Below are positions 13,018-34,718 of a stretch of DNA of 64,000 nt, one piece after another. A program made the translations under genes and the position numbers. The notes beneath the pieces are model-generated. The model was given only the letters and a program-made list of their open reading frames with translations, made no database searches and was not told the DNA's origin. Source of the DNA: a bacterium (GTDB lineage Bacteria > Patescibacteriota > Patescibacteriia > 2-12-FULL-60-25); assembly GCA_021796435.1 (NCBI GenBank), contig JAJYXM010000016.1, positions 1,367,580-1,431,579 of the forward strand, written 5' to 3'. Each line of letters opens with the position of its first letter. Within the stretch, counting starts at the first letter, position 1.

Positions 13018-15126
13018 TCAGATCTCGGCCAGCGGCAGAGTCACAATGAACTCGCTGCCTTTACCGACCTGACTTTTGACCTCAATCTTGCCTTTGTGTT
13101 TCTCGACGAAATGCTTAGCCAGATACAAACTCACTCCGGTGCCGTCGGCGGTCGTCTTGATGGCATCCTGTGAACGGAAAAAACGGTCAAAAATATGAGG
13201 TACGTCCTTTTCTTTGATGCCGGGACCGTTATCCGTAACCTTTATCTTGACCTCACGGGATGATTTTTCTGTCTTGATCTCGAAATCGACTTTCCCCTTC
13301 TCCTTGGTGTATTGGCAGGCGTTCTCCAATAACGTCCGCAGCACCCTGCTCAGCTTATCAGTGTCACCATTCACCAAAGCGGGATCCAACCGTGCGCTCA
13401 AGGTAATCCCTCTTTTCTTGCTCAACCCTTCGAGATCCTTGATGACACCTTCGGCGATCTTACGCAGGTCGACAAGTTTCTTCTCCATGGAGAGCTGGTT
13501 GTTCTCCATAGCCAAAAGGTCGAGGATATTATTCAAGGTGGAGCTCAAATACAGAGAGCGCTGACGTATCTCCTGCAGATTGTCCCGCGTATCCGTAGGT
13601 ATGCGTTTCCCTTCGAGCGCAATTTCGGAGTTCCACAGGATGGCGGTCAAAGGAGTGCGGAACTGATGCGAAACGACTTCGATGAAATCGCTCTTAACTT
13701 TATCGACGCTGCTCAATTGTTTGTAGAGCCGACGGATCTCTTCGTAGCGGACACCGCCCATGATGGCCGGAGCGGCGGTATCGCGGATGACGTTAAGCAG
13801 CATCACGTCGCGTTTTGACAAAATCGACTTGTCTTTCTTTTCGCCGAAAAACGCCATACCAACCATTTCTCCATCAGCAAAAAACGGCATCATCACTTCA
13901 ACTTTATTCTCCTGCATGAATTTGATGATCTGTTTGTCGCACTGCGGATCGTCTCCCTTGATATCGTTAGTCAAACGCCACTTCAATTCACTGGCCTCCA
14001 AAATCTGCCGATTTTTTGTTTCGCAGAAGTAGATGCCTTGAGTCAGGGCTTTGTAGATATCGCGACCAAAGCCCCGATTTATCGTCTTAAGTGGAGTGCT
14101 CGGGTTGTCGGAGCTGAATGCCAGAAGACCGATGCGGGTAAAGCCGAAATATTCCAGCAGTTTATTGGCTAGGTTCTCCATCAAAGTGTCCAAGCCGATA
14201 GAGTTGTTCAGCGTGTCGGAAACGTCCGTGATGGCGTCTTCATACACATAACTGCCGCGAGCCGTGGCCTTAGCCGTCAATTTGGAGATGTACTGGGCCA
14301 CCGGCACGAAGAGGGTCGCCATGATGAACGACGAGACAAGGCTGGGGACGACGTAGTTCGTGGAATTACGGAGGAAGAAGTCCAAGCTGAATATGATGGT
14401 GAAGGAAAGGAACCAAAGGAAGATGAAGTCGAAAGATTTCTTGATGACCCAGCGGATCTCGAGGAAGCGATAGCTGATGATGGCGTGGGCGATGAATGTA
14501 GAGAGGAAGATGGTGAATAAAGGTCCGAGCGCGTTCCAGCGATAGTCGTTGAAGATAAAAGGTATCAAAAGGTTAGTGAAGCTCGTTGGGATGATGAAGA
14601 GAGAGATGCCCAAACTTACTACAACAGACTGGCTGCGAATCAATCCCTTGGAGCCAATAGCTCTTTTCCATGATCTGATGAGACTGTAGTAGATGGCGAA
14701 GATGAAAAACAACATCCAGAGCATAGAGCTCCAGCCGACGAAACTGCCGAGTATATAACCATCTGGCACTATTACTGTCGTCAAAAAGAATGGAGTCAAA
14801 GTCAAAGCGACCAATGCGATGCCTACAGATGAAGCGAAGATCGCCCAGAAACGTTTATAAGCGCTTTCCTGAGGGAACACTTGGGAGAAGATCAGCAAAC
14901 CGGCGGCGACCACTGTACCAAAACTAAAAGTCAGTCTTCCCCACCATAAAGGAGATCCGAGGCCTGATAAGACGCAGAATATCGCCAAGTTCCATCCCGC
15001 AATACCTATACTGAAAATGAAATATGAAATGTTCGACCAGCGTTTGTGGTTGTGGTAAACGATAAACAAGCCTAACAAAAGGTTTATTATAAAAGTTACG
15101 AACTGGAGAAGAAGAACAAATGACAT
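13018..15126 (-). CDS. Membrane histidine kinase with 7-8 TM sensor and GAF domain
   Basis: The N-terminal ~285 residues contain about eight hydrophobic segments resembling the histidine-kinase N-terminal 7TM sensor. A GAF-like region follows (~300-465), then HisKA with H box SHQFRTPLTAILWN (~485) and a HATPase_c domain with N box LLENACQYT, G1 DNGPGI and G2 GTGVSLYLAKH. It should phosphorylate a receiver protein, most simply the CheY-like protein downstream. ATG at 15126 is chosen; a TATAAT box (15138-15143 on the minus strand) lies 11 nt upstream and no Shine-Dalgarno is seen. Confidence 0.9.
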   Translation of the reverse strand: MSFVLLLQFVTFIINLLLGLFIVYHNHKRWSNISYFIFSIGIAGWNLAIFCVLSGLGSPLWWGRLTFSFGTVVAAGLLIFSQVFPQESAYKRFWAIFASSVGIALVALTLTPFFLTTVIVPDGYILGSFVGWSSMLWMLFFIFAIYYSLIRSWKRAIGSKGLIRSQSVVVSLGISLFIIPTSFTNLLIPFIFNDYRWNALGPLFTIFLSTFIAHAIISYRFLEIRWVIKKSFDFIFLWFLSFTIIFSLDFFLRNSTNYVVPSLVSSFIMATLFVPVAQYISKLTAKATARGSYVYEDAITDVSDTLNNSIGLDTLMENLANKLLEYFGFTRIGLLAFSSDNPSTPLKTINRGFGRDIYKALTQGIYFCETKNRQILEASELKWRLTNDIKGDDPQCDKQIIKFMQENKVEVMMPFFADGEMVGMAFFGEKKDKSILSKRDVMLLNVIRDTAAPAIMGGVRYEEIRRLYKQLSSVDKVKSDFIEVVSHQFRTPLTAILWNSEIALEGKRIPTDTRDNLQEIRQRSLYLSSTLNNILDLLAMENNQLSMEKKLVDLRKIAEGVIKDLEGLSKKRGITLSARLDPALVNGDTDKLSRVLRTLLENACQYTKEKGKVDFEIKTEKSSREVKIKVTDNGPGIKEKDVPHIFDRFFRSQDAIKTTADGTGVSLYLAKHFVEKHKGKIEVKSQVGKGSEFIVTLPLAEI

Positions 15127-17692: not shown

Positions 17693-17708
17693 ATTTTTTT
17701 CATTATAC

Positions 17709-17973
17709 CTCAAAATTCGCGTCCCTTTTTTATCTTAACCACAACGAGTCCGATGATGGTCATCTCCGGACTCCGGGTTAAACACACTCGCTCATTTCCC
17801 TGCCTCAGTGAACAGGTCTGGGGCAGGGAGAGAACGGTCTGTTTTTTGTTTTGGTTTTTCTTTTCACCGATCGTAATGGTTTTGAAGTGGGTGGGTAAAG
17901 AGCGTCGATCGATGTTGTAATACCATTTTATAGATAAACAAGCATGACAGAAAATTCATGCAGTTCTAGATGC
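17709..17973. other. Structured intergenic region, function unknown
   Basis: No protein gene is seen. It holds a long imperfect hairpin TTAACC...GAGTCCG / CGGACTC...GGTTAA (about 17734-17782), and TCCCTGCC / GGCAGGGA (17797-17830) followed 12 nt later by TTTTTTGTTTT on the plus strand. It could hold a small RNA or a processed leader. No matching promoter was identified with confidence. Confidence 0.35.
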
Positions 17974-17996
17974 AAAATCGAGCTTCGTGAGCTCGA
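17974..17996 (-). terminator. Terminator of the small membrane-protein gene
   Basis: Minus strand TCGAGCT-CACGA-AGCTCGA perfect 7-bp stem followed by TTTT. Confidence 0.65.
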
Positions 17997-18032
17997 CTTC
18001 CTTATTGATAAGCTGTGGATAGGTATTGAACA

Positions 18033-18212
18033 CTAAAAATGTATATCGAATTGGGATGAGTAGCCCATGAACAATATGGCACAAGTCACGACAAGCAACA
18101 GATGCCAGTGCAAGATATGATTCAACCAATACTTCAAATCAGTCTCGACTGACGAGTATTCCTGCTCCAGCAGCTTCAAGCGGCTCATTTTCTTTTTCCT
18201 CCGTTGCGGCAT
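18033..18212 (-). CDS. Small basic single-TM membrane protein (59 aa)
   Basis: Unknown family. The N-terminus is strongly basic (MPQRRKKK), then an amphipathic stretch (SRLKLLEQEYSSVETDLKYW) and a hydrophobic segment ILHWHLLLVVTCAILFMGY near the C-terminus. The start at 18212 is preferred because an extended -10 (TGCTATAAT, 18219-18227 on the minus strand) ends 6 nt before it, as for other leaderless genes here. ATG at 18188, preceded by GGAGG at 8 nt, is an alternative giving 51 residues. Confidence 0.6.
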   Translation of the reverse strand: MPQRRKKKMSRLKLLEQEYSSVETDLKYWLNHILHWHLLLVVTCAILFMGYSSQFDIHF

Positions 18213-18386
18213 GGTGGGATTATAGCACAATGAACGCTTGGAATCAGTGGATTTGACCTTGGTGGATAACCCTGATTCACTATACGCATCGCACCGGAGT
18301 GGCCCGGCGCGGTCCACCGACCGTAAACGGACGGGATCATCCCCAAGGGGACACCGACGTATACGGCGATAGGAAGGAGAAATGCC

Positions 18387-19076
18387 ATGGCTCTGCGAAT
18401 CGTATTGAACGAAAAAGCGCACAAACGACTAACGGAACACCCGGATGCCCAGATGATACGACTGAAGGGGCAAGGGAGCATCGACGGCTGTCGGGTCTGC
18501 TACAACTCCGACGGAGACCTTTTCTACGAGGTCAACGACGAAACACGCCCATTGATCGCCATCGTACCCTTCGCTCTGCGGCCGTACGTGCTGGCTTTCG
18601 ACTGGCGTACGTGCCTTCCGCCGGACGGTCCGACGAAGACCCTTGGGCGTTATGTCTTCCAAACGGCCGAGGCGATAGTCGACCATGGTCGCGACAAGCT
18701 GTGCTGGCGCAAGATACGCGTCCACGGGCCCAAGCTGGAGGACGTGTTCCAGCTCTACTACCAGCTCCGCGCTGGCACGGCCGAACTCTCGGAAAGCTGG
18801 CAAAAACCCGAAGCCGTGCTGGACGGCGTCATCGAGGAAGCCCTCGGCATCGCAGAACCGCCGCAGCTACCAGCAGAGCCTACATCGATCGCCTTCCGCT
18901 GTCCTGCCTGTGCAGCCGACTACGACATCAAGGCAGAAAAGGTACTGAGAAGGAAAATCCGCACCACATGCCGCAAGTGCGGCAGTGCGATCCACCTCGA
19001 CAACGGTGTCGTCGAGGAAAGAAGCGGTGAACACCGCCTCCTCCCCGTGAAGCCGACTGGCGGCACAACGAACTGA
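18387..19076 (+). CDS. Unknown protein with C-terminal zinc ribbon
   Basis: The N-terminal ~150 residues match no family I recognise. Residues ~170-205 carry FRCPACAADYDI ... TTCRKCGSAIHL, a CxxC...CxxC zinc ribbon like the MJ0042-type finger, suggesting nucleic-acid or protein binding. The start is fixed by AAGGAG 7 nt before the ATG. First gene of the GC-rich plus-strand array; it ends in its own terminator. The gene lacks any signal peptide or membrane segment, so it is probably cytoplasmic. Confidence 0.75.
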   Translation: MALRIVLNEKAHKRLTEHPDAQMIRLKGQGSIDGCRVCYNSDGDLFYEVNDETRPLIAIVPFALRPYVLAFDWRTCLPPDGPTKTLGRYVFQTAEAIVDHGRDKLCWRKIRVHGPKLEDVFQLYYQLRAGTAELSESWQKPEAVLDGVIEEALGIAEPPQLPAEPTSIAFRCPACAADYDIKAEKVLRRKIRTTCRKCGSAIHLDNGVVEERSGEHRLLPVKPTGGTTN

Positions 19077-19109
19077 CCGCCTCTGCAGCGTCACAGGCAT
19101 CGAACCTAT

Positions 19110-19145
19110 GAGCGGCAGCCAACTCGGCTAGCCGCTCTTCATTTT
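19110..19145 (+). terminator. Terminator at the first array junction (divergent copy)
   Basis: GAGCGGC / GCCGCTC stem with 14-nt loop, then TTCATTTT. Different sequence from the later junctions but in the same place, 13 bp before the next -35 box. Confidence 0.6.
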
Positions 19146-19157
19146 ATCGCAGAACTA

Positions 19158-19187
19158 TTGACTTTTTTGTCGAAAACCGCTTAGATT
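19158..19187 (+). promoter_or_regulatory. Array promoter 1
   Basis: TTGACT (19158-19163), 18-bp spacer ending ACCGCT, TAGATT (19182-19187). Confidence 0.65.
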
Positions 19188-19232
19188 CACACGTCCGCAA
19201 CAAGATACGGTCGTCCAAGCGGAGGGAGTGCG

Positions 19233-19562
19233 ATGAAAAAGCCTTGTTTCCTGTTCCTTCTCCTCGGTCTTCTCGGATGCCATCAACAGCTGGCTGTGCG
19301 TGGAGGCGATGCGACCGCGGTCGCCGGTCCCGGAGGATCAGCCAGCGCAAGCGGCGGCAGAGCCACCGTGTTCAACGGCTCGGGTCAATCGGTCTACGCC
19401 GAAAGCTGCTCGGTCGAGGCCGTGCAGACCACGTTCTCGAGCTACGTCAAATGCACCTGCAACGGCGTCGAGATCCAGCCGGTGTACGACAATGCGACGC
19501 AGACCTGGATCTGCAGGCTGCCGACGGCAACTCCGGCGTACAACCATGGATACCCACGCTGA
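19233..19562 (+). CDS. Small lipoprotein
   Basis: Signal peptide MKKPCFLFLLLGLLGC with lipobox LLGC, so it is probably lipid-anchored at the outer face of the membrane. The mature ~90 residues are Gly/Ala/Ser-rich first, then contain three Cys (ESCSVEAV, YVKCTCNGVEI, WICRLP) that could form disulfides. GGAGGG precedes the ATG by 7 nt. Cotranscribed with the next gene, 20 bp downstream. No recognisable domain. Confidence 0.7.
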   Translation: MKKPCFLFLLLGLLGCHQQLAVRGGDATAVAGPGGSASASGGRATVFNGSGQSVYAESCSVEAVQTTFSSYVKCTCNGVEIQPVYDNATQTWICRLPTATPAYNHGYPR

Positions 19563-19582
19563 AAACAACAAGGAGGGAGTCG

Positions 19583-19843
19583 ATGGGTTACGAGCTCGTG
19601 AATTCCAGTTCACAATATTTCAAATACGGAGCACTATCCTGCATCCGCATCGATGAGGAACGCGACCTGACGGACGGTCTCGTCGACGAGATCGTCGGTG
19701 TTGCACGCAAAGAAGGTGCGACATTCGACGACGATGGCGACGAGGAAGTCTTCGTGGTCGAATTCCCCGGTAGGCCGCAGGAGGTCTACACCGAGAGCGC
19801 ACTTCGTCGCAGCCTCAAGCCCTACCTCCTCCAGTCCGACTGA
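19583..19843 (+). CDS. Small unknown protein (86 aa), paralogue of 19982 gene
   Basis: ATG at 19583 follows AAGGAGGG by 5 nt. The product is acidic and has no signal or membrane segment. Its whole length aligns with the first ~85 residues of the protein at 19982: both read G/R-Y-x-L/V-V, then YGAxxCIxI, an Asp/Glu-rich helix, then VFxxxxPGxxQxxYxxxxLxRxL. It therefore represents a small stand-alone domain family. Ends 30 bp before a terminator. Function unknown. Confidence 0.7.
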   Translation: MGYELVNSSSQYFKYGALSCIRIDEERDLTDGLVDEIVGVARKEGATFDDDGDEEVFVVEFPGRPQEVYTESALRRSLKPYLLQSD

Positions 19844-19872
19844 ACCCCGCCTCAACCGCACTCCGAACACTG

Positions 19873-19904
19873 CCGCACTCGGCACACAGCTCGGGTGCGG
19901 TTTT
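19873..19904 (+). terminator. Array terminator 2
   Basis: CCGCACTCGG ... CGGGTGCGG stem followed by TTTTCG, directly before the -35 at 19918. Confidence 0.75.
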
Positions 19905-19917
19905 CGATATGAAGGGA

Positions 19918-19947
19918 TTGACTTTTTGGCCTGAATCCGCTTAAATC
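19918..19947 (+). promoter_or_regulatory. Array promoter 2
   Basis: TTGACT (19918-19923), 18-bp spacer, TAAATC (19942-19947). Its first 13 bases are identical to the promoter of the minus-strand methyltransferase gene. Confidence 0.65.
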
Positions 19948-19981
19948 GTCGCAGTCCCTTCGAATGAAAGAAGGCCGTCGC

Positions 19982-20563
19982 ATGAGATATCAAGTGGTTG
20001 AGCCAAGTCTCAAGTTCGGCAGCTACGGCGCCGAGGCGTGCATCATGATCCTTGACCCCGGAACGAACAACGACGAGGAAATCGAGAGGATCCTGAACAC
20101 GGCCCATGAGGTAGGCGCCGTGATCTGGGATGACGCCGCAGGCCACGCAGAGACGCAGTACGTCTTCGCGCTGCCGGGCAAGGCGCAGACCAAGTATCGA
20201 AAAGACGATCTAGTCCGCGAACTCAATGGCGTCAAACGCGGCAAGAAAGAGGCCAAGGCCTCGAAGGATGAGACTCCGGCCGGGTTCGTCAATCCCGAAG
20301 CTTTCTGGGAGTACGAAGGCGCCTACTCGATCGAGCTGACTACGGACGCCGCCAAAGGGAACATGCCGCGTTCCATCGTCTATGAAGGCGATATGGCGTT
20401 CGTGGCACGAGGGCAGATCAAGCTGAACACCGGTTCTTTCCAGTTCCGCTCCGAAGTCGAGCCGTTCTACTGCGCATCCAGATATATGAAGGCGATCCGC
20501 GACGGCCAAGGCAAGCTGCTGTGGGTCAACAACAGATATCGCAAGCAAGGGAGGCAGTCTTGA
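19982..20563 (+). CDS. Unknown two-domain protein (193 aa)
   Basis: Start at 19982 follows AAAGAAGG; the upstream in-frame ATG at 19964 has no Shine-Dalgarno. Residues ~1-85 form the same domain as the 86-residue protein encoded upstream (YGAEACIMI, GAVIWDD, FALPGKAQTKY). A Lys-rich linker follows (~88-102), then a second domain of ~90 residues (EAFWEYEGAYSIELTT ... SIVYEGDMAFVARGQIKL) without known relatives. Cytoplasmic by sequence. The stop codon overlaps the TTG start of the next gene (TTGA), so the two are translationally coupled. Confidence 0.7.
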   Translation: MRYQVVEPSLKFGSYGAEACIMILDPGTNNDEEIERILNTAHEVGAVIWDDAAGHAETQYVFALPGKAQTKYRKDDLVRELNGVKRGKKEAKASKDETPAGFVNPEAFWEYEGAYSIELTTDAAKGNMPRSIVYEGDMAFVARGQIKLNTGSFQFRSEVEPFYCASRYMKAIRDGQGKLLWVNNRYRKQGRQS

Positions 20564-21156
20564 AAGACATCCTGTCCGTGCTGGCGGGAATCATCTTCCT
20601 CGTCGGCTTTGTCCCCTACATCCGGGCGATCTTAAGGAAGAAGGACCCGATCAAGCCATCGAAAGTCTCGTGGCTAATCTGGACTGCGAACGACGCGATG
20701 ATCCTTTCCGGTATGGTGGCCAAACATAGCCTGAGCGGCCAAATCGTGGGTGCGCTCCTGGGGTCGATCGTGACACTCGTCCTGGCGCTCAAGTTCGGCA
20801 AGGCCGAATGGACTTGGGTGGACAAAGGATCACTTGCCGGAAGCATCCTGGGCGTCATCCTCTGGGCACTCCTGAAAGAACCAAATTTCTGCATCGTCAT
20901 CAGCGTCGGTGTTGCGCTCGTGGGCTCTATACCGACCTACGTCTCGATGTGGAACAGTCCGGAAGACGAAGACAAAGTCGGCTGGACCATCTTCTCAAGC
21001 TCAAGCATCTTCGCTATCGGTGCCATCCCGGCGTTGACCTGGGAGGATGCCACCCAACCCATAGGCTATGCCTTGGGTAACGTAGTCATCATGTTCCTCC
21101 TGTTCATCAGGCCGCGACTCCTGCTGGCAAAAAAACCGGTGAAGTCGCAGGCCTAG
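20560..21156 (+). CDS. PQ-loop-like multi-pass membrane protein (198 aa)
   Basis: TTG at 20560 is chosen because GGGAGG lies 5 nt upstream. About seven hydrophobic segments. Two internal repeats resemble PQ-loop/SWEET units: VGFVPYIRAILRKKDPIKPSKVSWLIW near the start and GSIPTYVSMW...VGWTIFS about 100 residues later, with PY and PT in place of PQ. The same architecture is in the gene at 21825. SWEET/PQ-loop proteins carry sugars, amino acids or other small solutes; the substrate here is unknown. Confidence 0.65.
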   Translation: MKDILSVLAGIIFLVGFVPYIRAILRKKDPIKPSKVSWLIWTANDAMILSGMVAKHSLSGQIVGALLGSIVTLVLALKFGKAEWTWVDKGSLAGSILGVILWALLKEPNFCIVISVGVALVGSIPTYVSMWNSPEDEDKVGWTIFSSSSIFAIGAIPALTWEDATQPIGYALGNVVIMFLLFIRPRLLLAKKPVKSQA

Positions 21157-21171
21157 ACCTTCCTCAGCAAG

Positions 21172-21210
21172 CCGCACTCGACTACTCCGTCGGATGCGGT
21201 TTTCCGTTTT
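21172..21210 (+). terminator. Array terminator 3
   Basis: CCGCACTCGAC...GTCGGATGCGG stem, TTTTCCGTTTT tail; near identical to copies at 21725, 22432 and 24916. Confidence 0.8.
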
Positions 21211-21217
21211 AAGAGGG

Positions 21218-21245
21218 TTGACGGAAAAGATACAATCCGTAAAGT
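21218..21245 (+). promoter_or_regulatory. Array promoter 3
   Basis: TTGACG (21218-21223), 16-bp spacer, TAAAGT (21240-21245); embedded in the shared AAGAGGGTTGAC sequence that follows the terminator. Confidence 0.5.
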
Positions 21246-21302
21246 TCTGATAGCTCAACCAACTCCAGTAAAGATAGAACAGCTCTTTAGGAGGTTCGGA
21301 CA

Positions 21303-21695
21303 ATGCCAAGCAAGTCGAACGGCGCCAAGGGACAAACGTGCATCAAGATGTTCGTCGTCACCGCCTATCACGGTAGCGGTCACGGCGATACTTCAACCAC
21401 TTTCCTAGTCACCCCGGATTTCACCGAGGCACTGGCTGCTGTGAGCGATGAGAGCTTGGGGTATCACGCCAAGTTCTGCAGCATCGACCATGGCTTTTCG
21501 ATCGACATGCTCACTGTAGGCAAGCCGTATCCGAGACGGGCATTCTCGAGCTATGACCACAGTCCGGTGCCGGAAGATTTTCCGAACGTAGTCTTCTTCC
21601 GCTGGTTCAAGGATGGACTACGCGCTGAGTGGCGGCCTGACGTATTGGAGCGTATGGGTGTTCATGCTTCGCTATCCATCTCCAGACAGCCGTGA
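21303..21695 (+). CDS. Unknown soluble protein (130 aa)
   Basis: Not recognised. AGGAGG precedes the ATG by 8 nt. The chain reads IKMFVVTAYHGSGHGDTST ... PDFTEALAAVSDESLGYHA, then an aromatic-rich second half (NVVFFRWFKDGLRAEW). No signal peptide, membrane segment or Cys cluster. It stands as a single-gene cassette with its own promoter and terminator. Confidence 0.65.
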   Translation: MPSKSNGAKGQTCIKMFVVTAYHGSGHGDTSTTFLVTPDFTEALAAVSDESLGYHAKFCSIDHGFSIDMLTVGKPYPRRAFSSYDHSPVPEDFPNVVFFRWFKDGLRAEWRPDVLERMGVHASLSISRQP

Positions 21696-21724
21696 GATAA
21701 AGAGGGGCATCTAATCAACTCAAG

Positions 21725-21762
21725 CCGCATCAGACTACTCCGTCGGATGCGGTTTTCCGTTT
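21725..21762 (+). terminator. Array terminator 4
   Basis: CCGCATCAGACTACTCCGTC...GGATGCGG hairpin, TTTTCCGTTTT tail. Confidence 0.8.
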
Positions 21763-21770
21763 TAAGAGGG

Positions 21771-21798
21771 TTGACATGGCCGTGGATTCTGCTAATTT
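21771..21798 (+). promoter_or_regulatory. Array promoter 4
   Basis: TTGACA (21771-21776), 16-bp spacer, TAATTT (21793-21798). Confidence 0.65.
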
Positions 21799-21824
21799 GA
21801 CGGGACACGAAAAGGAGGAGCACC

Positions 21825-22427
21825 TTGGACAATGCCGTCTGGCTCAGTCTCCTGTCTGCCGCCTTTGATTCCTGCGCTTACATCATCTACAACTTGGAGT
21901 TCTGGAGAGGCCGTTCGAAGCCCAACAAGGCGACGTGGGCGCTATGGTTCTACATCGCCACCTTGAACGCGAGTTCATACCTTGTCTCTTCGCACGACGT
22001 GGTGAAGACACTGCTCGCTCTGGAGAATGCGGGGATGTGCGGGCTCACGCTCGCTGTCGTACTGTTCCGAGGCAAGTCGGAAAAGCTAAAACCATGGGAG
22101 TGGGTGACCGTAGCCTCCGGCGTAGCCACTGGGGCGGTTTGGATCATCTCTCGGCATGCTTTCTACGCGAATGCCGTATTGCAGTTCGGCACGTTCATAA
22201 GCGTCATACCGACCTATGCGAAGCTCTGGAAAGATCCCCGACGCGAACCTCCCCTGCCCTGGTTCATGTGGAGCGTGATCTACATCGCGCTCTGCGTTGT
22301 GGTCATGCTGCGCTGGCGAGGCTCGTGGCACGATATCGTGTATCCGCTGAACTACGTCCTGTTCCATTTCGCGGTGTTCGTCCTGACACTGCGGCGCTGG
22401 ACCAAAAAAAGTCCAGCAACCTCATGA
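21825..22427 (+). CDS. PQ-loop-like multi-pass membrane protein (200 aa)
   Basis: TTG start with AGGAGG upstream. Six to seven hydrophobic segments. Repeat 1: YNLEFWRGRSKPNKATWALWFY; repeat 2, about 100 residues later: ISVIPTYAKLWKDPRREPPLPWFMW. The layout matches the membrane protein at 20560, so the two are paralogues, though clearly diverged. Likely a small-solute transporter of the PQ-loop/SWEET type, but a Pro-Gln pair is not conserved and the substrate is unknown. Confidence 0.65.
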   Translation: MDNAVWLSLLSAAFDSCAYIIYNLEFWRGRSKPNKATWALWFYIATLNASSYLVSSHDVVKTLLALENAGMCGLTLAVVLFRGKSEKLKPWEWVTVASGVATGAVWIISRHAFYANAVLQFGTFISVIPTYAKLWKDPRREPPLPWFMWSVIYIALCVVVMLRWRGSWHDIVYPLNYVLFHFAVFVLTLRRWTKKSPATS

Positions 22428-22431
22428 TCGA

Positions 22432-22470
22432 CCGCATCTGACTTTCTTCGTCGGGTGCGGTTTTCCGTTT
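22432..22470 (+). terminator. Array terminator 5
   Basis: CCGCATCTGAC...GTCGGGTGCGG hairpin, TTTTCCGTTTT tail. Confidence 0.8.
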
Positions 22471-22478
22471 TGGGAGGG

Positions 22479-22507
22479 TTGACAAATGGGACGTTTTCGT
22501 GTATGTT
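22479..22507 (+). promoter_or_regulatory. Array promoter 5
   Basis: TTGACA (22479-22484), 17-bp spacer, TATGTT (22502-22507). Confidence 0.7.
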
Positions 22508-22619
22508 GCTCAATCGACATTTTGAGTATTTGAGCCTGGTTTTTGGCCTTATTGAGGCTAATGTTCCGTGCTTGAATAGTGCCATTCCGGCGCTTCCACG
22601 GAAGTAGGAGTTCATTCAC
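22508..22619 (+). promoter_or_regulatory. Structured ~105-nt 5' leader
   Basis: Between promoter and ATG lie AGCCT/AGGCT and a TTCCGTG ... CACGGAA stem closing an inner hairpin just before AGGAG. A cis-regulatory leader is possible; no known riboswitch class is recognised. Confidence 0.35.
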
Positions 22620-23807
22620 ATGCGTCAGCATCAGCCTGGAATGGTCGCCAGGGGCGGGCGGCCGCAGTGGCTAGAGAACGCCCACTCTCGCGCGCGGCAC
22701 AACGCGTGGCTCGCGAAGACGGGTCAGCGTCCGGACCGCATCGAGACGCGCGAAGAGACGAGAGGCGGCAAGATCGTCGCCATCGTCGCCGAGAGCCGGG
22801 TGGACATCCCGGTTCCGGCCGCGCTCAAGGACCGCGGCGTGAAGGAGGTCTTCGCCAAGACCAACTCCGCGGTCGTACTCCAGGGCGAGAGCATCGTGGC
22901 GGAAGAGTTCCGCAGCCGCGTGCTCGTCGTCGTCTTCAAGCAGCCGCAGAACGGCATCCGCGGCCTGCCCGTCACGCCCGCCGAGGGGCGCAAGCTCCGC
23001 AAGCAGGGCTTCACCCACCTCGTCATCACATCGGTGCCGCAAGGCGCCCGCCAGCGTGAGAGCCTCGAGGCGCTCATGCAAGGCCGCTACGACGAGAGCG
23101 GCTGGTGGCTCGGCTTCTACAAGCCGACCGGCGGGCACCGGCACGAAGGGCAGAAGGGCGGTGAGCTCGTCTGCGATTTCCAGTCCGAGCTCTTCGTCCT
23201 GCAGTACCTCTGCGAGAACGGCCTCTGGTCGCTCTACGAGGTGCCCCTCATCGCGAGCTGGAAGTTCCTCCCCAAGACGGACGAGCAGCGCGAAGAGGAG
23301 AACGCCGCTGCGGAGCAGATCCAGGCGCTCTTCGGTCGGGTACAACGGCTCCACGAGGAGCACACATACCACTACGCACGACTCTTCGAACACTTCCGCG
23401 ACATGCACCGCGAGAGCGCGATGGACGAGACGGAGCTCGAGGCGCGGGCGCAGGCAGCCCTGAACGATACCGTGATCGGCGGCCTGAGGCAGCGACGGAT
23501 CGAGGATGGAAGCTACGAGACCCGCGCCTACTACCTGGCGCTGGACGAGTCCATGGCCTACTCGATCCACAACTCGCGCCAGGGGCAGATGGTCGTGAAG
23601 ATCGACCTGCGCACCAGGACGGTCGAGGTCGGGCTCGTGAAGCAGGACCTGAACGGCCTCGCGCTCATGGGGTTCTACGACGACTTCCTCACGTCGAACA
23701 AGTTCCGCGAGGTCACGTGGAGCGAGTTCAGCACCTACACCACGGGCATCAGCGCAGTGGATCTCGCAGGCAGCAGCTCCGAGAGCCTCGCCATCAACGG
23801 CAGCTGA
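22620..23807 (+). CDS. Large unknown GC-rich protein (395 aa)
   Basis: No recognisable domain. Residues ~1-45 are basic; ~50-130 alternate strands and helices (KIVAIVAESRVDIPVPAALK, SRVLVVVFKQPQNGIRGL); ~225-290 are helical and charged (EEENAAAEQIQALFGRVQRLHEEH), possibly a coiled coil; the rest is mixed alpha/beta. No signal peptide or membrane segment. AGGAG lies before the ATG. The base composition is markedly more GC-rich than flanking core genes, as is codon choice at third positions. It is followed 14 bp later by a small gene with its own Shine-Dalgarno. Confidence 0.75.
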   Translation: MRQHQPGMVARGGRPQWLENAHSRARHNAWLAKTGQRPDRIETREETRGGKIVAIVAESRVDIPVPAALKDRGVKEVFAKTNSAVVLQGESIVAEEFRSRVLVVVFKQPQNGIRGLPVTPAEGRKLRKQGFTHLVITSVPQGARQRESLEALMQGRYDESGWWLGFYKPTGGHRHEGQKGGELVCDFQSELFVLQYLCENGLWSLYEVPLIASWKFLPKTDEQREEENAAAEQIQALFGRVQRLHEEHTYHYARLFEHFRDMHRESAMDETELEARAQAALNDTVIGGLRQRRIEDGSYETRAYYLALDESMAYSIHNSRQGQMVVKIDLRTRTVEVGLVKQDLNGLALMGFYDDFLTSNKFREVTWSEFSTYTTGISAVDLAGSSSESLAINGS

Positions 23808-23821
23808 CCAAGGAGGTCGAC

Positions 23822-23965
23822 ATGACAACCTGGCAGCGAATAGGCAACTACGAGTACGAGGTCAGCATATCGGGCTACACCGGCTGGTACAGATGCATCG
23901 GCGGCAAGCTCGCAGATGGACGCTGGCCAGCCTGGAACAAGCAGGGCGAAAGACGCTACGTCTGA
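23822..23965 (+). CDS. Small unknown protein (47 aa)
   Basis: ATG at 23822 with AAGGAGG 5 nt upstream. The product is rich in aromatic residues and Gly (WQRIGNYEYEV, GYTGWYRCIGGK, RWPAWNKQG). It follows the 395-residue gene by 14 bp, so both share a transcript. No known family; too small for confident folding guesses. Confidence 0.6.
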   Translation: MTTWQRIGNYEYEVSISGYTGWYRCIGGKLADGRWPAWNKQGERRYV

Positions 23966-24002
23966 ACATCACCTCCGTCAGTTCCCCTTCCCCCTCAAAA
24001 AA

Positions 24003-24038
24003 CCGCACTCGACTACTCAGTCGGGTGCGGTCTTCGTT
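24003..24038 (+). terminator. Array terminator 6
   Basis: CCGCACTCGACTACTCAGTC...GGGTGCGG hairpin with a weaker tail TCTTCGTTTA. Confidence 0.65.
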
Positions 24039-24042
24039 TACC

Positions 24043-24072
24043 TTGACGACCTCATCAAGAACGTCCAAGATA
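24043..24072 (+). promoter_or_regulatory. Array promoter 6
   Basis: TTGACG (24043-24048) with AAGATA at 18-bp spacing (24067-24072). It ends 5 nt before the ATG of the HD gene, so that transcript may be leaderless. Confidence 0.45.
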
Positions 24073-24077
24073 GGGCC

Positions 24078-24893
24078 ATGAGACGCTCTTTACTCGAAGA
24101 ATTAGGGGATTTTGCGGGGCGCGAAGAGGCGCTGCGCGAGGTCACACGGTTCCACATCTTCAACCCGATGTTCTATCGGTCGAATGATGCCATCCACGCC
24201 CTGCGCGTGTATATGCTTACGCGATTCTTGCTGCGGAGCGCCAAGAACCAATCGATCGAGCTGGATGCGACCTTCGCCGAAGCGCTGGCGCTCGTGCACG
24301 ACGACCATGAGATGCTCACGGGTGACCCACAAGCCGGTGACAAGGCTAACATGACACCCAAGCAACTCGCCAAGCTCAAGCGACGCGAGCTCGCGGCGAT
24401 CGAGGTGTTGGTGAAACGCTTCCCCAAGACACTTGGCGGATATAGCTATCGCGAGCTTTTGCTCGACGTATACGAAAGGCAGAGCAAGGAGTGCCACCTG
24501 ATGCAGTTCGCCGATAAGCTCGACGGTCTGTGCGAGGCGCTGCACGAACTCGCCGCTGGCAACCTAGCCTTCGCCCGCCCGGTGACCACGAAATACGGCG
24601 AAGTGCCCATCGCGCCGATCTTCTATGCGCGTTACTTCAGAAGTTACGCCAAGCTCTATCCGGAGTTCGCTTTCCTGGTCGAGGGACCTAACAATGTTCG
24701 ATTGGTCGATCCAGATGCGCTTGAGAGCAAGGACTGGCTCGAATGGGCCAGCAAGCGACGTCCTTGTACGCGCAGCCGGCTCACGTTCCTGACCAGGATC
24801 ATCCCCTATGACCTCTGGGTCAGCGTACTCTGGAACGCCAAAAGGGAGTTGGGCATCGACTTCATCCCCAGTCTCATCACTAAGGTCGAATAG
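24078..24893 (+). CDS. HD-domain phosphohydrolase, YfbR-like
   Basis: The HD hallmark appears as LVHDDHEMLTGDPQAG, with an upstream His in the helix DAIHALRVYMLTRFLL and the later metal Asp in QFADKLDGLCEAL; this is the YfbR (5'-deoxynucleotidase) branch of the HD superfamily. Such enzymes remove phosphate from dNMPs. The C-terminal ~100 residues are extra and unassigned. ATG at 24078 is preferred because the preceding in-frame codons run through the array terminator. Length 271 is longer than YfbR (~200). Nucleotide-pool enzymes also act in phage defence, but there is no direct evidence here. Confidence 0.75.
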   Translation: MRRSLLEELGDFAGREEALREVTRFHIFNPMFYRSNDAIHALRVYMLTRFLLRSAKNQSIELDATFAEALALVHDDHEMLTGDPQAGDKANMTPKQLAKLKRRELAAIEVLVKRFPKTLGGYSYRELLLDVYERQSKECHLMQFADKLDGLCEALHELAAGNLAFARPVTTKYGEVPIAPIFYARYFRSYAKLYPEFAFLVEGPNNVRLVDPDALESKDWLEWASKRRPCTRSRLTFLTRIIPYDLWVSVLWNAKRELGIDFIPSLITKVE

Positions 24894-24915
24894 ACCTCGA
24901 CCTCACTCCACAAGG

Positions 24916-24950
24916 CCGCATCCGACTACTCCGTCGGGTGCGGTTTTCTG
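24916..24950 (+). terminator. Array terminator 7
   Basis: CCGCATCCGACTACTCCGTC...GGGTGCGG hairpin with TTTTCTGTTT tail. Last copy of the series; the next gene is on the other strand. Confidence 0.8.
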
Positions 24951-24955
24951 TTTCA

Positions 24956-25768
24956 TCAAATCTTATCGTAGTAACCGAATTCCTTTGACGTAATCAGCCT
25001 GTGGCTGTGAGGACCAAGATCGTATTTCAGTTTCTTGAGTATCTTCTTTTTACTTGCTGGTTCGGGGGAAGTATAAAGTCCGATCTCAGGCCAATCTGAT
25101 TGACGCTCGCCGGTCGGCAGATGCACCGGCTCGCGCTCGACGATGCGACGGAGCATCTTACTCCTCTGCATCCATATCTCGTTATCGACAAAATGGGTCA
25201 AAAAATATTTCTGGAATGTATACTGCACGGCGCCTTCTAGTGTCGGAATGACATATTGTAGCGCGAAGAGATCCAAAAACTTCTCGGCGTAGCTATCATA
25301 GTCTACCGGGAATAGTTTTACCTTGCGGTTCCACTCGATGTCGAGGATGAAGAAGTCAGTCGAGAATCCAGTTGGCTTGTCCGGAGCTTTTGCACGACCC
25401 CATGAACTTGCGGCCAAGACCCTCCCCTCTTTCTGCATCTGATCGGTGAGACTTTTCAGGAAATCGATATCAAGAAGCCAGGTGTCGGCTGCAGTTACCA
25501 GGACGTATTTGAGTCCGGGGATCTTCTTGGTCGAAAAATATTTCAGGCCGGCATTGATGAGATCCGCGGCACCCTTAAAGTGTCCACGGTTCTTGATCCT
25601 GATGAGTCTGTCTTCGAGATAGGGCTTGTAACCGAATTGCGGCTTTCCGTTGTAGGCGTGGACAAGATGGATTTTACCGAAAGCCTTTGGATAGAGCTTC
25701 TTGGAGACTTCCTGCTGGATGCGGACGTCATCGAGGTGTTGGTAGTCGTAGATAAGATGGCCGAGCAT
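24956..25768 (-). CDS. Putative glycosyltransferase-like protein
   Basis: Cytoplasmic protein of 270 residues. The first half resembles a GT-A/nucleotide-sugar transferase fold: an N-terminal beta strand region, RGHFKGAADLINAGLKYF, and KYVLVTAADTWLLDIDFLKSL, in the place where GT-A enzymes keep a short acidic motif. No certain DxD is seen, so the assignment is tentative. The C-terminal ~60 residues are basic. On the minus strand TATACT ends 10 nt before the ATG. Base composition is closer to the core genes than to the array on either side. Confidence 0.45.
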   Translation of the reverse strand: MLGHLIYDYQHLDDVRIQQEVSKKLYPKAFGKIHLVHAYNGKPQFGYKPYLEDRLIRIKNRGHFKGAADLINAGLKYFSTKKIPGLKYVLVTAADTWLLDIDFLKSLTDQMQKEGRVLAASSWGRAKAPDKPTGFSTDFFILDIEWNRKVKLFPVDYDSYAEKFLDLFALQYVIPTLEGAVQYTFQKYFLTHFVDNEIWMQRSKMLRRIVEREPVHLPTGERQSDWPEIGLYTSPEPASKKKILKKLKYDLGPHSHRLITSKEFGYYDKI

Positions 25769-25862
25769 AACGGAAATCAGTATACACCGGACGGTTGTAA
25801 GACTGTATTGACCCTGCCATTGGTGTAGGGCAAACTAGGCGCAACGCAAAAAAGGAGCCAGT

Positions 25863-26840
25863 ATGGAGATCCAAGACGGGACCAGACGCCTAGCGCAGCG
25901 GATCCGTGTGGATGCCGTAAAGCTCCAGGAACTGCGCGCACTTTCACCGAAGTATTCGACCCATCGTCAGCCCAAGCCCAGCGGCGGATTCAGGGTCATC
26001 GCCAAGCCGCATCCCGAGCTCCTCGGGATGCAACGCCTGGTGCTCAAGCGATACCTGAAGCACATGTTGCGTACGGTCTCGCCGTTTGTGCATGGCGGCA
26101 TGCGCGGGCGCGACTACGTGACCAACGCCCTTCCGCATCGCCGTGCCGAAGCGGCCTTGGTGATAGACCTCAAAAGCGCCTATGGCCAGGTGACCCGCGA
26201 GCGTCTGCACAAGACACTACAGAGAGCGGGCTGCGAAGGAGACATGTTGGAATGCTTGCTCGACCTGACAGTCGACGACGAGTTGGGTCTGCCGCAAGGT
26301 GCGGCGACCTCGAATGCACTCTTCAACCTGGCGTGCCACGAGCTGGATGAAGCACTGACGCAGATCGCGTTGCGCGAGGGCATGCGCTATACGCGCTACG
26401 TCGACGAGATCACCATCTCGGCGCGACGTGAGATTCCGCAGGTCCTACGCTTGCACATCACATCGACCATCGAGTCCTTGGGCTGGCAGGTCAATCCGCG
26501 TAAGGTGCGTTACTTCGAAGCTACGCACGGTGCGCTGGAGATCACCGGCGTCAGCGTGCACGACGAAGCGGTGACGCTGTCCAAGAGACGGATCGAGGAA
26601 CTGCGTACGCTGCTGCACCGGGCGCTCACCGACGCTACACTTTCCCGCGAGGTCATCGAGGGAAAGATGAGCCAGGTGCGCCGGGTCTATGGCGATAATC
26701 TTCCATGCCGTCTGCGACGAGCATACGCGAAGGCCTATTGGGCCCTCCGCGACCGTCGCAGGGCGCAACAGAAAGGAGTGATGCATGCGGAAGCACCTGA
26801 ACGGCGGATAGATTGGCCAGGCACCTCGACTGACTTCTGA
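25863..26840 (+). CDS. Retron/group-II-type reverse transcriptase (lone)
   Basis: RNA-directed DNA polymerase of 325 residues. Motifs: KPSGGFRVIAKPH (RT1, ~38-50), VHGGMRGRDYVTNAL (RT2, ~76-90), catalytic Asp102 in LVIDLKSAYGQV (RT3/A), LPQGAATSNALFNL (RT4, ~143-156), YVDEITIS (RT5/C, 179-186), then NPRKV and ITGVSV (RT6-7). The catalytic pair is DE rather than DD. LPQGxxxS argues against a diversity-generating retroelement type. No maturase, endonuclease or effector domain is attached. AAGGAG precedes the ATG. Only 94 bp separate it from the divergent gene upstream, leaving little room for a normal retron ncRNA. Confidence 0.85.
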   Translation: MEIQDGTRRLAQRIRVDAVKLQELRALSPKYSTHRQPKPSGGFRVIAKPHPELLGMQRLVLKRYLKHMLRTVSPFVHGGMRGRDYVTNALPHRRAEAALVIDLKSAYGQVTRERLHKTLQRAGCEGDMLECLLDLTVDDELGLPQGAATSNALFNLACHELDEALTQIALREGMRYTRYVDEITISARREIPQVLRLHITSTIESLGWQVNPRKVRYFEATHGALEITGVSVHDEAVTLSKRRIEELRTLLHRALTDATLSREVIEGKMSQVRRVYGDNLPCRLRRAYAKAYWALRDRRRAQQKGVMHAEAPERRIDWPGTSTDF

Positions 26841-27020
26841 TCGAGCCCAATCGAACACGCAAGACCCATGCGGGTCCGACGGTCGGCGGTATCCGCCGGC
26901 TGAATAATTGCACGAGATGTCCTGCAAGCATCGGACGTACTCGTCGCCCCCGCCACCTGTGACGTCGCGGGATGCCGTCGATCAGAACCCACCTTGGCAC
27001 ATTCTTCTCTACGACACGAA
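26841..27020 (+). other. RT 3' region with hairpins
   Basis: Between RT stop and terminator: GACCC-ATGC-GGGTC and GGCGG-TAT-CCGCC hairpins (26872-26900). It could be the RNA partner of the RT or only the 3' UTR. Confidence 0.35.
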
Positions 27021-27057
27021 AAAGGGACCACGCCTCACGCGGTCCCTTTCCCTTTTT
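27018..27057 (+). terminator. Terminator after the RT gene
   Basis: AAAAAGGGACC-ACG-CCTCA-CGC-GGTCCCTTTCCCTTTTT; A- and T-tracts on both sides make it bidirectional, so it can also serve the convergent gene at 27095. Confidence 0.8.
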
Positions 27058-27094
27058 ATGATGTATCCCGATTTTTTCTGCTCTGGGTTCCCGT

Positions 27095-27700
27095 TTATAT
27101 CGTCTCTGGATATTTGACCGGGATATTGAAGACATAGTTCCAAGTCACGTTGCGACCTCCACCGATGTCGAGCTTGAGCAGCAGACCGAATAAGATGAAA
27201 GCCGTAAAGAGCAGGACCATCAACGGATAGTAGATCGCTTTACGTCTGATGGCTTTGCGCAAACGGATGAAGAGCAACCAGTAGGTGAAGATCCAGAGAG
27301 GGAAAGAGAAAAGCACACGGACCTTATGCACGATGAATGTCGTAACGAGGAAGAAGTGTTCGTCTTCCGGAGTGACGAACTGTTTGATGGATAGATCCAG
27401 ATCGTCTTCCACCACGGCATGGACGCCTGCCTGATAGATCCAACCGCCGTGGAAGTAGATGCCTTCACCGTATCTATCCGCGTAGTTCATGGGCATCATG
27501 ACGCCTGCTGAATAGAGACCAGTGGGAGACAGAAAAGACATGCCTTGTACGACCAAAGTATCATGGCTGAAACAAGGTGATTCATAGCAGTCAGTGCTAT
27601 GGATGACGGCATGGTCGGAGAGAATAAAAATGAAGGTACAGAAAGCCAAAACCCACCATTTCTGGCGCCAAAGGGTTTTGCGGGTTTCGGGGGAGAGCAT
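27095..27700 (-). CDS. Membrane protein of unknown function (201 aa)
   Basis: Three hydrophobic segments: WWVLAFCTFIFILSDHAVI (~15-33), LFSFPLWIFTYWLLFI (~130-146) and YYPLMVLLFTAFILFGLLL (~158-176). The ~95 residues between the first two form a probable extracytoplasmic loop with two Cys (TDCYESPC). No known family. TATCCT lies 6 nt before the ATG on the minus strand without Shine-Dalgarno, so a leaderless mRNA is likely. Confidence 0.65.
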   Translation of the reverse strand: MLSPETRKTLWRQKWWVLAFCTFIFILSDHAVIHSTDCYESPCFSHDTLVVQGMSFLSPTGLYSAGVMMPMNYADRYGEGIYFHGGWIYQAGVHAVVEDDLDLSIKQFVTPEDEHFFLVTTFIVHKVRVLFSFPLWIFTYWLLFIRLRKAIRRKAIYYPLMVLLFTAFILFGLLLKLDIGGGRNVTWNYVFNIPVKYPETI

Positions 27701-28114: not shown

Positions 28115-29326
28115 ATGCCTACTCACATCAAACCAATTAGAACAGAAGAGGACTACAAAGAGGCTTTAGCTTTAATCGCGGAACTTCTAGAAAAAGACCC
28201 TGAGCCAGACACCGAAGATGGTGAAAAGTTGGAGCTTTTGACGACCTTGATTCAAGACTACGAATCAAAAACAATCCCTCAATCTCTCCCCGACCCAATC
28301 GACGCGATTCTATTTCGTATGGAACAGGAGAGTCTAAAGGCATCTGACTTAGCTCCGTATATTGGAAGCCGAAGCAAAGTTTCAGAAGTCCTATCTCGTA
28401 AAAGACCACTCACACTCTCGATGATACGTTCTCTCGAAGCGGGTCTAGGAATTCCAGCAAAAGTCCTCCTACAGGAATCGGATGACTTCCGAATTTCAGA
28501 AGAAATCTCATGGAACAGATTTCCGATTAAAGAAATGCAAAAACGTGGTTACTTTGATAGTGCGACGTCAAAGGCAAAGGATCTTAATGCTGCCATCGAG
28601 GAGTTCTTTCGTCCCATACAACTTCAAACCAATTTCGCTGGGATGCTTCGTAAGACGAACTACAGATCCGTGAGGCCTATGAATAGATACGCTCTCATAG
28701 CTTGGACAGCTCGCGTCATCAAAAAAGCCAGGGAGATCGAAGATGTTGCCAACTTCAAAGAGGGAACGGTCGATTTAGACTTGATGCAGAGAGTCGCGCA
28801 GCTCAGTATCCATGAGGATGGACCGATTCTTGCTCATGATTTCTTGAAAAAGTATGGCGTCATTTTGGTGATAGAACCTCATCTACCCCAGACATATCTG
28901 GATGGAGCGACTTTAAGTGAAGATGGAAAAAGGCCGATTATCGGATTAACAGTTCGAATGGATCGCTTAGATAGCTTCTGGTTTACGCTCATGCACGAAC
29001 TCGCTCATATTGCTTTGCACTCTAATCAAAACTGTAACTTCTTTTACGATGACCTGGACAATTCAGATAGTAAAAACAAGCAAGAACAAGAAGCAGACGC
29101 TCTTGCTTCAGAAGCGCTAGTACCGAGAAGTAAGTGGGAGAATAGCCCAGCGAGACTTATTCCGTCGCCCATAGCCGCAGAGAGCCTCGCAAGAGAACTG
29201 GGGGTTCATATCGCAATTGTCGCTGGGAAAATGCGCCGGGAAGAAGGACGATACGTTTATCTCACAAAAATAATCAACGAAGCGAAAGCTAGGAAGTATT
29301 TCGCTAATCAAAAATGGATCAACTAG
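28115..29326 (+). CDS. HigA-type antitoxin fused to ImmA/IrrE metallopeptidase
   Basis: Residues ~1-120: HigA-like antitoxin with an HTH (LKASDLAPYIGSRSKVSEVLSRKRPL). Residues ~230-403: ImmA/IrrE-type zinc peptidase with FTLMHELAHIALHS (HExxH) and EQEADALASEALVP. This fusion suggests that the peptidase may cleave its own or another antitoxin/repressor in response to damage, releasing HigB. The stop is 1 nt before the start of the next gene. Confidence 0.88.
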   Translation: MPTHIKPIRTEEDYKEALALIAELLEKDPEPDTEDGEKLELLTTLIQDYESKTIPQSLPDPIDAILFRMEQESLKASDLAPYIGSRSKVSEVLSRKRPLTLSMIRSLEAGLGIPAKVLLQESDDFRISEEISWNRFPIKEMQKRGYFDSATSKAKDLNAAIEEFFRPIQLQTNFAGMLRKTNYRSVRPMNRYALIAWTARVIKKAREIEDVANFKEGTVDLDLMQRVAQLSIHEDGPILAHDFLKKYGVILVIEPHLPQTYLDGATLSEDGKRPIIGLTVRMDRLDSFWFTLMHELAHIALHSNQNCNFFYDDLDNSDSKNKQEQEADALASEALVPRSKWENSPARLIPSPIAAESLARELGVHIAIVAGKMRREEGRYVYLTKIINEAKARKYFANQKWIN

Positions 29327-29327
29327 T

Positions 29328-31162: not shown

Positions 31163-31280
31163 GTCCGGCAGCGGGCTACTCTCCCAGGACCGGGTTGGGT
31201 CCAAGTACCATCGCTGCTGGTGGGCTTAACTTCTGTGTTCGGAAAGGGAACAGGTGTGGCCCCACCGCTTAAACCACCGG
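31163..31280 (-). rRNA. rrf: 5S ribosomal RNA
   Basis: Minus strand contains GGGGCCACACCTGTTCCC, CGAACACAGAAGTTAAGC and GGGAGAGTAG, the conserved 5S core, with closing ends near 31163 and 31280. About 118 nt. Confidence 0.93.
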
Positions 31281-31580
31281 CTTCGTATTGCAAGTTCCGT
31301 TTCGACGCATCACTTTGTCTCGTGATGCATCCAAACTATCGCTTACCAGACAAAATCGGGGGTCTAAATTGTGAATCTAACTTCCTGATCGGAAGTCGTA
31401 CGTGCAAGGCAGATGAATAAAGCAATTTTCGCTACACCTTCACCACCATCGAGACGTCAGAAAATCGATGAGATGCGACTGGCTGGAGCAAGGAATGGGC
31501 ACAGGCGTACTTTGACGTACGTCGAGCACATTCCGTTGCGAAGCTAGAGCAGCTCGCGATTTTATGGCGTCGAGTCAGGA
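31281..31580 (-). other. 23S-5S spacer with a long imperfect hairpin
   Basis: No gene. From ~31466 to ~31560 the spacer folds on itself: GGAATG / CATTCC (31492-31497 with 31529-31534) enclosing CGTAC-TTTGA-CGTACG (31506-31521), flanked by longer imperfect pairing (GCGACTGGCTGGAGC with GCTAGAGCAGCTCGC). Probably a processing stem between 23S and 5S. Confidence 0.5.

Positions 31581-34718
<3,138 letters not shown>

What the first reader, a model, noticed from the sequence alone, without database searches (positions are those of the whole stretch)
18387..24950. Array of single-gene cassettes joined by near-identical terminator-promoter junctions
Six junctions (19873, 21172, 21725, 22432, 24003, 24916) share CCGCA(C/T)..GACTACTCCGTCGG.TGCGG-TTTTCCGTTTT; most run straight on (AAGAGGGTTGACA) into the next -35 box. 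Each cassette holds one or two unknown genes with strong Shine-Dalgarno sites. The conserved part is the junction, not the genes, which looks like a platform in which coding units are swapped or duplicated by recombination at the terminators.
Basis: partly seen in the sequence, partly recalled or inferred. Interest (0 to 1): 0.7.

Follow-up and report, generated by a model that had tools for sequence, protein, structure and literature searches.

The report
Gene cassettes joined by shared terminators
A tiny groundwater-type bacterium carries a row of mostly unknown genes separated by almost identical stop-and-restart signals for transcription, and in sister species different genes sit between these signals, which suggests that the signals are the seams at which genes are swapped.

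Summary
Six hairpin terminators (T1-T6) lie at the stated coordinates; five run into a -35 box, and the sixth, between convergent genes, has none. They are locus-specific: in the 1.6-Mb genome of this Ca. Uhrbacteria-like (Patescibacteria) organism the stricter consensus occurs only here. Near-identical terminator pairs are 11 of 71 here against 1 of 4378 in 452.7 kb of control.

In sister genome G001 the same neighbourhood has different genes between its own set of near-identical terminators. All three homology breaks fall on terminators. One site is "empty" here (one terminator) and occupied in G001 (terminators at both ends). G002 has a third gene between its terminators. In G001 the copies were homogenised after its split from the window's species. 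A second array in the same genus has a different hairpin whose 3' arm ends in the -35 box.

Compact terminator-promoter spacing is itself common in this genome. The recombination step is inferred. The closest known system is the PeSL promoter-terminator cassette of T4-type phages, with neisserial minimal mobile elements next. No phage or recombinase gene was found in the array.

The parts
18273..18381 (+). leader upstream of gene A, better conserved in G002 than gene A itself
   Evidence: 81% identity to G002 over 109 nt against 66% inside gene A; alignment of three genomes; no match to it in Rfam at E<=5 in window 17700-27200 or in L023 8550-14900
18387..19076 (+). gene A, conserved anchor gene with C-terminal zinc-ribbon-like part
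   Evidence: below-cutoff Zn_ribbon_4 match; homologues in 6 of 41 family genomes, own included
19233..19562 (+). gene B, small lipoprotein-like protein
   Evidence: sequence; present in G001 at 65% aa
19583..19843 (+). gene C, 86 aa, left flank conserved in G000, G001, G002
19873..19904 (+). T1: terminator junction; -35 TTGACT at 19918
   Evidence: 94% identical to G002 T1
19982..20563 (+). gene D, paralogue of C with extra C-terminal part
   Evidence: 32% over 81 aa, E 6e-9
20560..21156 (+). gene E, predicted multi-helix membrane protein
   Evidence: profile built from E and G found in 12 of 41 family genomes, own included; structure model too poor to use, mean pLDDT 50.2
21172..21203 (+). 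T2: terminator junction; -35 TTGACG at 21218
21303..21695 (+). gene F, unknown 130 aa
   Evidence: no Pfam, NCBIfam or PHROG match
21725..21756 (+). T3: terminator junction; -35 TTGACA at 21771
   Evidence: 95% identical to T2 over 55 nt
21825..22427 (+). gene G, paralogue of E
   Evidence: 26% over 203 aa, E 4e-11
22432..22464 (+). T4: terminator junction; -35 TTGACA at 22479, -10 TATGTT
22620..23807 (+). gene H, unknown 395 aa, locally high GC
   Evidence: weak relative in 1 of 40 other family genomes; GC
23822..23965 (+). gene I, 47-aa ORF
   Evidence: ORF with Shine-Dalgarno site
23999..24030 (+). T5: terminator junction before gene J; -35 TTGACG at 24043
   Evidence: homology to G001 resumes at 24000
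24078..24893 (+). gene J, YfbR-like HD 5'-deoxynucleotidase, right flank conserved in G001
   Evidence: PF12917 E 1.9e-14; 86% aa to G001
24916..24947 (+). T6: terminator between convergent genes, no -35 box; single copy where G001 has two around 2.07 kb
24956..25768 (-). convergent gene that closes the array, conserved in G001
   Evidence: 80% aa to G001; no Pfam match

Best explanation
This is a hypervariable chromosomal locus made of self-contained transcription units (-10, Shine-Dalgarno, one or two genes) set between copies of one locus-specific terminator that leads into the -35 box of the next unit. Because the junction repeats, it gives short tracts of homology (about 35-55 nt) at which homologous recombination, most plausibly with related DNA taken up by transformation, can add, drop or replace a unit. 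The incoming gene keeps a promoter and a terminator, and the neighbours stay insulated. The same tracts are homogenised within a genome by gene conversion. Shown: shared locus-specific junctions, different genes between them in sister species, homology breaks on the junctions, one empty versus occupied site, and homogenisation of copies in G001 after the species split. Inferred: that recombination at the junctions moved the genes, and that transformation supplied the DNA.
For: Locus specificity. Different genes between junctions in three congeners: D-I in G000, one zinc-ribbon protein K in G001, a 124-aa protein P in G002. Breaks of homology at window 19908, 24000 and 24916-24953, all on terminators. 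Empty versus occupied site: window T6 has the J-side flank of G001 T3 and the far-side flank of G001 T4; its hairpin is 89% like T4 and 81% like T3. Copies younger than the split: four-fold sites of J, C and the closing gene agree at only 51-61% between G000 and G001, while G001 T1, T2 and T3 agree at 89-94% with each other; G000 T1 still matches G002 T1 at 94%, so G001 T1 was overwritten. Second array with its own hairpin in all three genomes: 4, 3 and 3 copies; in 7 of 10 the hairpin's 3' arm ends in the -35 box, and the terminal copies lack it. A third site (locus C): G000 has 2.4 kb more and two hairpins where G001 has one. Competence: demonstrated in Saccharibacteria, com genes conserved across CPR phyla (PMC10633639, passages).
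Against: Three species and four neighbourhoods only; no strain series. Tracts of 35-55 nt are short for efficient RecA recombination (recalled). At locus B insertions lie beside the terminators without an extra terminator copy. At locus C the extra hairpin is inside the insert and not at its left edge. In the second array the genes are one divergent paralogue family and the hairpin is nearly the same in all three species, which fits tandem duplication with a constrained terminator. Compact terminator then TTGAC is enriched genome-wide (30 of 308 in G000, 13.6 expected; 25 of 282 in G001, 13.6 expected), so the layout itself is not special. Presence of recA and com genes in this genome was not tested.
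Confidence: 0.52

Rival explanations
1. Concerted evolution only: gene conversion among nearby terminators keeps them alike, while genes come and go by ordinary illegitimate insertion and deletion. Terminators are simply the places where an insertion does no harm.
For: G001 T1-T3 homogenised after the split; locus B shows insertions beside terminators without a new copy.
Against: At the window locus the extra stretch in G001 has its own copy at the far end, and T6 is a seamless single copy with one flank of each G001 copy. Blind insertion would not be expected to do this.
Confidence: 0.26
2. Tandem duplication: gene plus terminator was duplicated and the genes then diverged or were replaced, while the terminator stayed under selection.
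For: Paralogue pairs C/D and E/G; the second array is a paralogue family at 26-67% aa identity.
Against: Genes C/D and E/G are at 33% and 28% aa and near saturation at silent sites, while loop and tail sequences that a terminator does not need are still shared. F and H have no paralogue in the array.
Confidence: 0.13
3. Site-specific cassette system (integron- or Xer-like) that uses the hairpin as recombination site.
For: Imperfect inverted arms of 11 with a 6-7 nt centre look superficially like a recombinase core (the likeness is recalled).
Against: No recombinase or transposase among the 19 proteins scanned between 13.0 and 30.4 kb. Genes carry their own promoter candidates. G-U pairs and the T tract point to an RNA hairpin. 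The sequence differs between sister species.
Confidence: 0.04
4. Convergence on an optimal terminator, with no shared ancestry of the junctions.
For: All are strong hairpins; compact terminator-promoter spacing is common.
Against: Shared loops and tails inside the locus; the best match of a T1-T6 junction to any control terminator scores 23-38, against 41-98 within the locus.
Confidence: 0.02

Closest known systems
PeSL (promoter early stem-loop) cassettes of T4-type phages (Arbiol 2010, Comeau 2014; neither paper held; seen only through a passage and the reference list of PMC4503421)
   Same: Composite terminator stem-loop plus promoter, repeated between small genes in plastic regions, proposed to mediate gene shuffling between related genomes
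   Different: Here a bacterial chromosome with no phage gene found in the array; ordinary sigma-70-like boxes, of which only the -35 is in the shared part; sequence private to one locus and one genome
Minimal mobile elements of Neisseria (PMC2649163 passages)
   Same: Different gene cassettes between conserved genes without mobility genes; horizontal exchange
   Different: There homology lies in the flanking genes (recalled); here a repeated regulatory junction lies between all units
Phage morons (recalled; search listing only)
   Same: One gene with its own promoter and terminator added between others
   Different: No prophage context; neighbouring units share one terminator sequence
Integron cassette arrays (recalled)
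   Same: Row of one- or two-gene units with an inverted repeat at each seam
   Different: No integrase found near; units have promoter candidates; seams are terminators

Membership tests
PeSL cassettes | terminator stem-loop followed directly by a promoter at gene junctions | tested here: met
   5 of 6 junctions in the window, 7 of 10 in the second array; consensus matches only, no transcript data
PeSL cassettes | located in a T4-type phage genome with phage early promoters | tested here: not met
   chromosomal contig of 1.52 Mb; PHROG matches of the 10 array proteins weak at best, most with none; no relative of E, C/D or H in viral contigs and none of E in phages
PeSL cassettes | different genes between conserved motifs in related genomes | tested here: met
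   three congeners
Minimal mobile element | variable content between conserved flanking genes, no mobility genes | tested here: met
   C and J flank different content in G000 and G001; no mobility gene among the proteins scanned
Minimal mobile element | spread by natural transformation and homologous recombination | not testable with these tools
   competence is known in Saccharibacteria (PMC10633639), not tested in this genome
Integron | integron integrase near the array | tested here: not met
   none among 19 proteins scanned in 13.0-30.4 kb; intI was not searched genome-wide
Integron | promoterless cassettes with attC sites | tested here: inconclusive
   cassettes have -35/-10 candidates and the seam is a T-tailed hairpin, which speaks against; attC models were not run
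Moron | inserted within a prophage | tested here: not met
   no phage protein among the array and neighbour proteins scanned

The most novel reading that the evidence does not exclude
In this lineage of Patescibacteria, terminator-promoter junctions are the general seams for gene gain and loss: several loci per genome each keep a private, self-homogenising junction sequence that lets naturally transformed DNA be spliced in as ready-to-express single-gene units, a bacterial counterpart of phage PeSLs.
Probability: 0.33. Interest if true: 0.75.

Novelty: new variant of a known kind. Interest (0 to 1): 0.52.

Why it matters
Patescibacteria have very small genomes yet variable gene content, and how they acquire genes is mostly unknown. 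A repeated regulatory seam that keeps each incoming gene expressed and insulated would be a simple route. It can be tested by comparing strains. The sharp sequence signature (locally repeated terminators that run into a -35 box) can be searched in any genome to list exchange-prone loci.

Tried and rejected
Genome-wide terminator consensus: rejected. Phage origin: array protein E has no match in phages, E, C/D and H none in viral contigs, the junction none in viral contigs; plasmids were not searched. Known RNA element: no Rfam hit to the junctions or leaders (two chance-level hits overlap gene bodies and one, SAM_alpha at E 2.5 on the opposite strand, overlaps the second G002 hairpin). Defence genes in the array: none of 10 proteins (8 of the window, one of G001, one of the second array) matches PADLOC.

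Recent transfer of the TrmB-like gene L between G001 and G002 (91% aa): dropped because four-fold sites agree at only 35%; it is conserved, not recent. Structure of E: model too poor, so no fold search was run. Covariation support for the hairpin: not above shuffles; a first count used a structure that was one column off. The first comparison script printed nothing for the window because of a naming slip of mine and was repeated. Literature: no paper holds both 'Uhrbacteria' and 'terminator', 'Patescibacteria' and 'intrinsic terminator', or 'Candidate Phyla Radiation' with 'gene cassettes' and 'homologous recombination'; the wider search gave nothing. These searches cover only the held open-licence library.
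Full report
WHAT IS THERE. The window is part of a 1.52-Mb contig of a 1.63-Mb genome. Its nearest searchable relatives are Patescibacteria: G001 corresponds in contig length to isolate Ess09-17 and G002 to a Ca. Uhrbacteria groundwater MAG. From 19.87 to 24.95 kb six strong hairpins with T tracts (T1-T6) stand at exactly the coordinates given. Between them, all on the + strand, lie D+E, F, G, H+I and J. J is a YfbR-like HD 5'-deoxynucleotidase. D, F, G and H match no Pfam or NCBIfam family at E<=0.1 and no PHROG except a marginal hit of H; E has only a weak match to a PHROG of unknown function. C/D and E/G are old paralogue pairs. Five hairpins run on within about 10-20 nt into a TTGAC box; T6, which faces a convergent gene, does not.

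IS IT MORE THAN CHANCE. The stricter consensus occurs five times in the genome, all here. The 20-mer core with up to three mismatches occurs five times, four here. Of 57 genomes searched with two mismatches, only this one and one weak site elsewhere matched. I folded all candidate terminators and compared those on the same strand 250-5000 bp apart. Near-identical pairs (score 36 or more) were 11 of 71 in this locus and 1 of 4378 in 452.7 kb of the same genome. They were 5 of 64 in the G001 locus, 5 of 3401 in 400 kb of G001, 1 of 3702 in 290.7 kb of other family genomes, and 2 of 2454 in 282 kb of other genomes of the class. Both class pairs sit in longer repeats. Two of the G001 control pairs are one simple repeat seen on both strands. 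Terminators taken from different control stretches of G000 also matched now and then (9 of a sample of 42,515 pairs; 0 of 29,346 in G001), which I did not follow up.

SISTER GENOMES. G001 has the same neighbourhood. Homology runs through C to window 19908, stops on T1, resumes at 24000 on T5, runs through J to 24953 on T6, and starts again from 24916 on T6 for the convergent gene. Between C and J the window has 4091 bp with six genes; G001 has 917 bp with one unrelated zinc-ribbon protein. After J the window has only T6; G001 has 2073 bp of other genes with a terminator at each end. T6 carries the J-side flank of one G001 copy and the far flank of the other, as expected for an empty site. G002 has E before C, then T1, then another unrelated small gene, then a second hairpin. 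G003 shows no match to this stretch. So the conserved thing is indeed the seam, and the genes vary.

AGE OF THE SEAMS. G000 T1 and G002 T1 are 94% identical, yet G001 T1 (83% to G000 T1) is 94% identical to G001 T2 and T3. By protein identity G000 and G001 are the closer pair, so T1 was overwritten in G001. Four-fold sites of J, C and the closing gene agree at 51-61% between G000 and G001; copies at 89-97% within a genome are therefore younger than the species split. They are also much younger than the paralogue pairs, which argues against simple tandem duplication of gene plus terminator. The tracts are short (36 nt), so single values carry wide error.

IS THE HABIT GENERAL. The control scan of G001 and G000 pointed to three more places. 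Locus A, beside a conserved gene, has 4, 3 and 3 copies of another hairpin in G000, G001 and G002. On the strand of the genes its 3' arm ends in GCCGTTGACT, so the -35 box is fused to the terminator in 7 of 10 copies; the three copies next to the convergent gene lack it. Its genes are one diverged family (26-67% aa). Locus C: G000 has 2.4 kb more than G001 and two hairpins instead of one, but the extra hairpin is inside the insert. Locus B: two hairpins in each genome, with insertions beside them and no extra copy; this does not support the model. Terminator followed by TTGAC within 50 nt is about twice as frequent as expected in the genome (30 of 308 in G000 and 25 of 282 in G001, 13.6 expected in each). 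The layout is therefore normal for this compact genome, and the unusual part is the shared sequence. Loci of E relatives in other family genomes also show a few locally repeated terminators, each with its own sequence (11 of 2279 pairs, some of them longer repeats).

MECHANISM. Most likely the repeated seams serve as short homologies for exchange of ready-made transcription units, with gene conversion keeping them alike. Competence has been shown in Saccharibacteria and com genes are conserved across CPR phyla (PMC10633639, passages read); a 2025 study reports 124 transfer events involving Patescibacteria (PMC12455944, passages read). The exchange itself is not shown here. Conversion plus ordinary gene turnover is the main rival.

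KNOWN KINDS. It works like the PeSL promoter-terminator cassettes of T4-type phages (known to me through PMC4503421; the original papers are not held) and like minimal mobile elements (PMC2649163). It is not a PeSL by membership (no phage genome), nor is there support for an integron (no integrase near, promoter candidates in the units).

Noticed in passing
window 25863-26840 (+): Retron/DRT-like reverse transcriptase (best PADLOC model RT_VI, E 8.5e-45; NCBIfam retron models below cut-off) with YVDE where YxDD is usual; absent from the syntenic place in G001.
   Followed up: partly
window 28115-30434 (+): PD-Lambda-2 defence genes B (E 7e-152) and C (E 1e-37) near the array; a short ORF just upstream (about 27.8-28.1 kb) may be component A. 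Not matched in G001 at that place.
   Followed up: partly
window 18273-18381; L023 8693-8801; L043 about 13990-14135 (-): Leader of gene A with conserved blocks in three species, better conserved than the gene; possible unlisted structured RNA.
   Followed up: partly
L043 9140-9420 (-) and 8660-8820 (-); L023 13120-13400 and 13730-13890: In G001 and G002 a TrmB-like gene is followed by a strongly conserved promoter and leader, and later by a second conserved leader, but the genes right after them are unrelated or nearly so: again the regulatory part is kept and the gene differs.
   Followed up: partly
L191 2359-4450 (G000:C1:1343900-1349300), L119, L192: Second cassette array with a hairpin fused to the -35 box, encoding a diverged family of about 220-aa proteins without Pfam match (3 members scanned).
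   Followed up: partly
window 31163-34716 (-): 5S and 23S rRNA without a 16S gene found in the window: the rRNA genes seem unlinked.
   Followed up: no
L034 2680-5033 (G000) and L023 8350-8653 (G002): Dispersed GC-rich repeats of the type TAGGGGC(A/G)GG.
   Followed up: no
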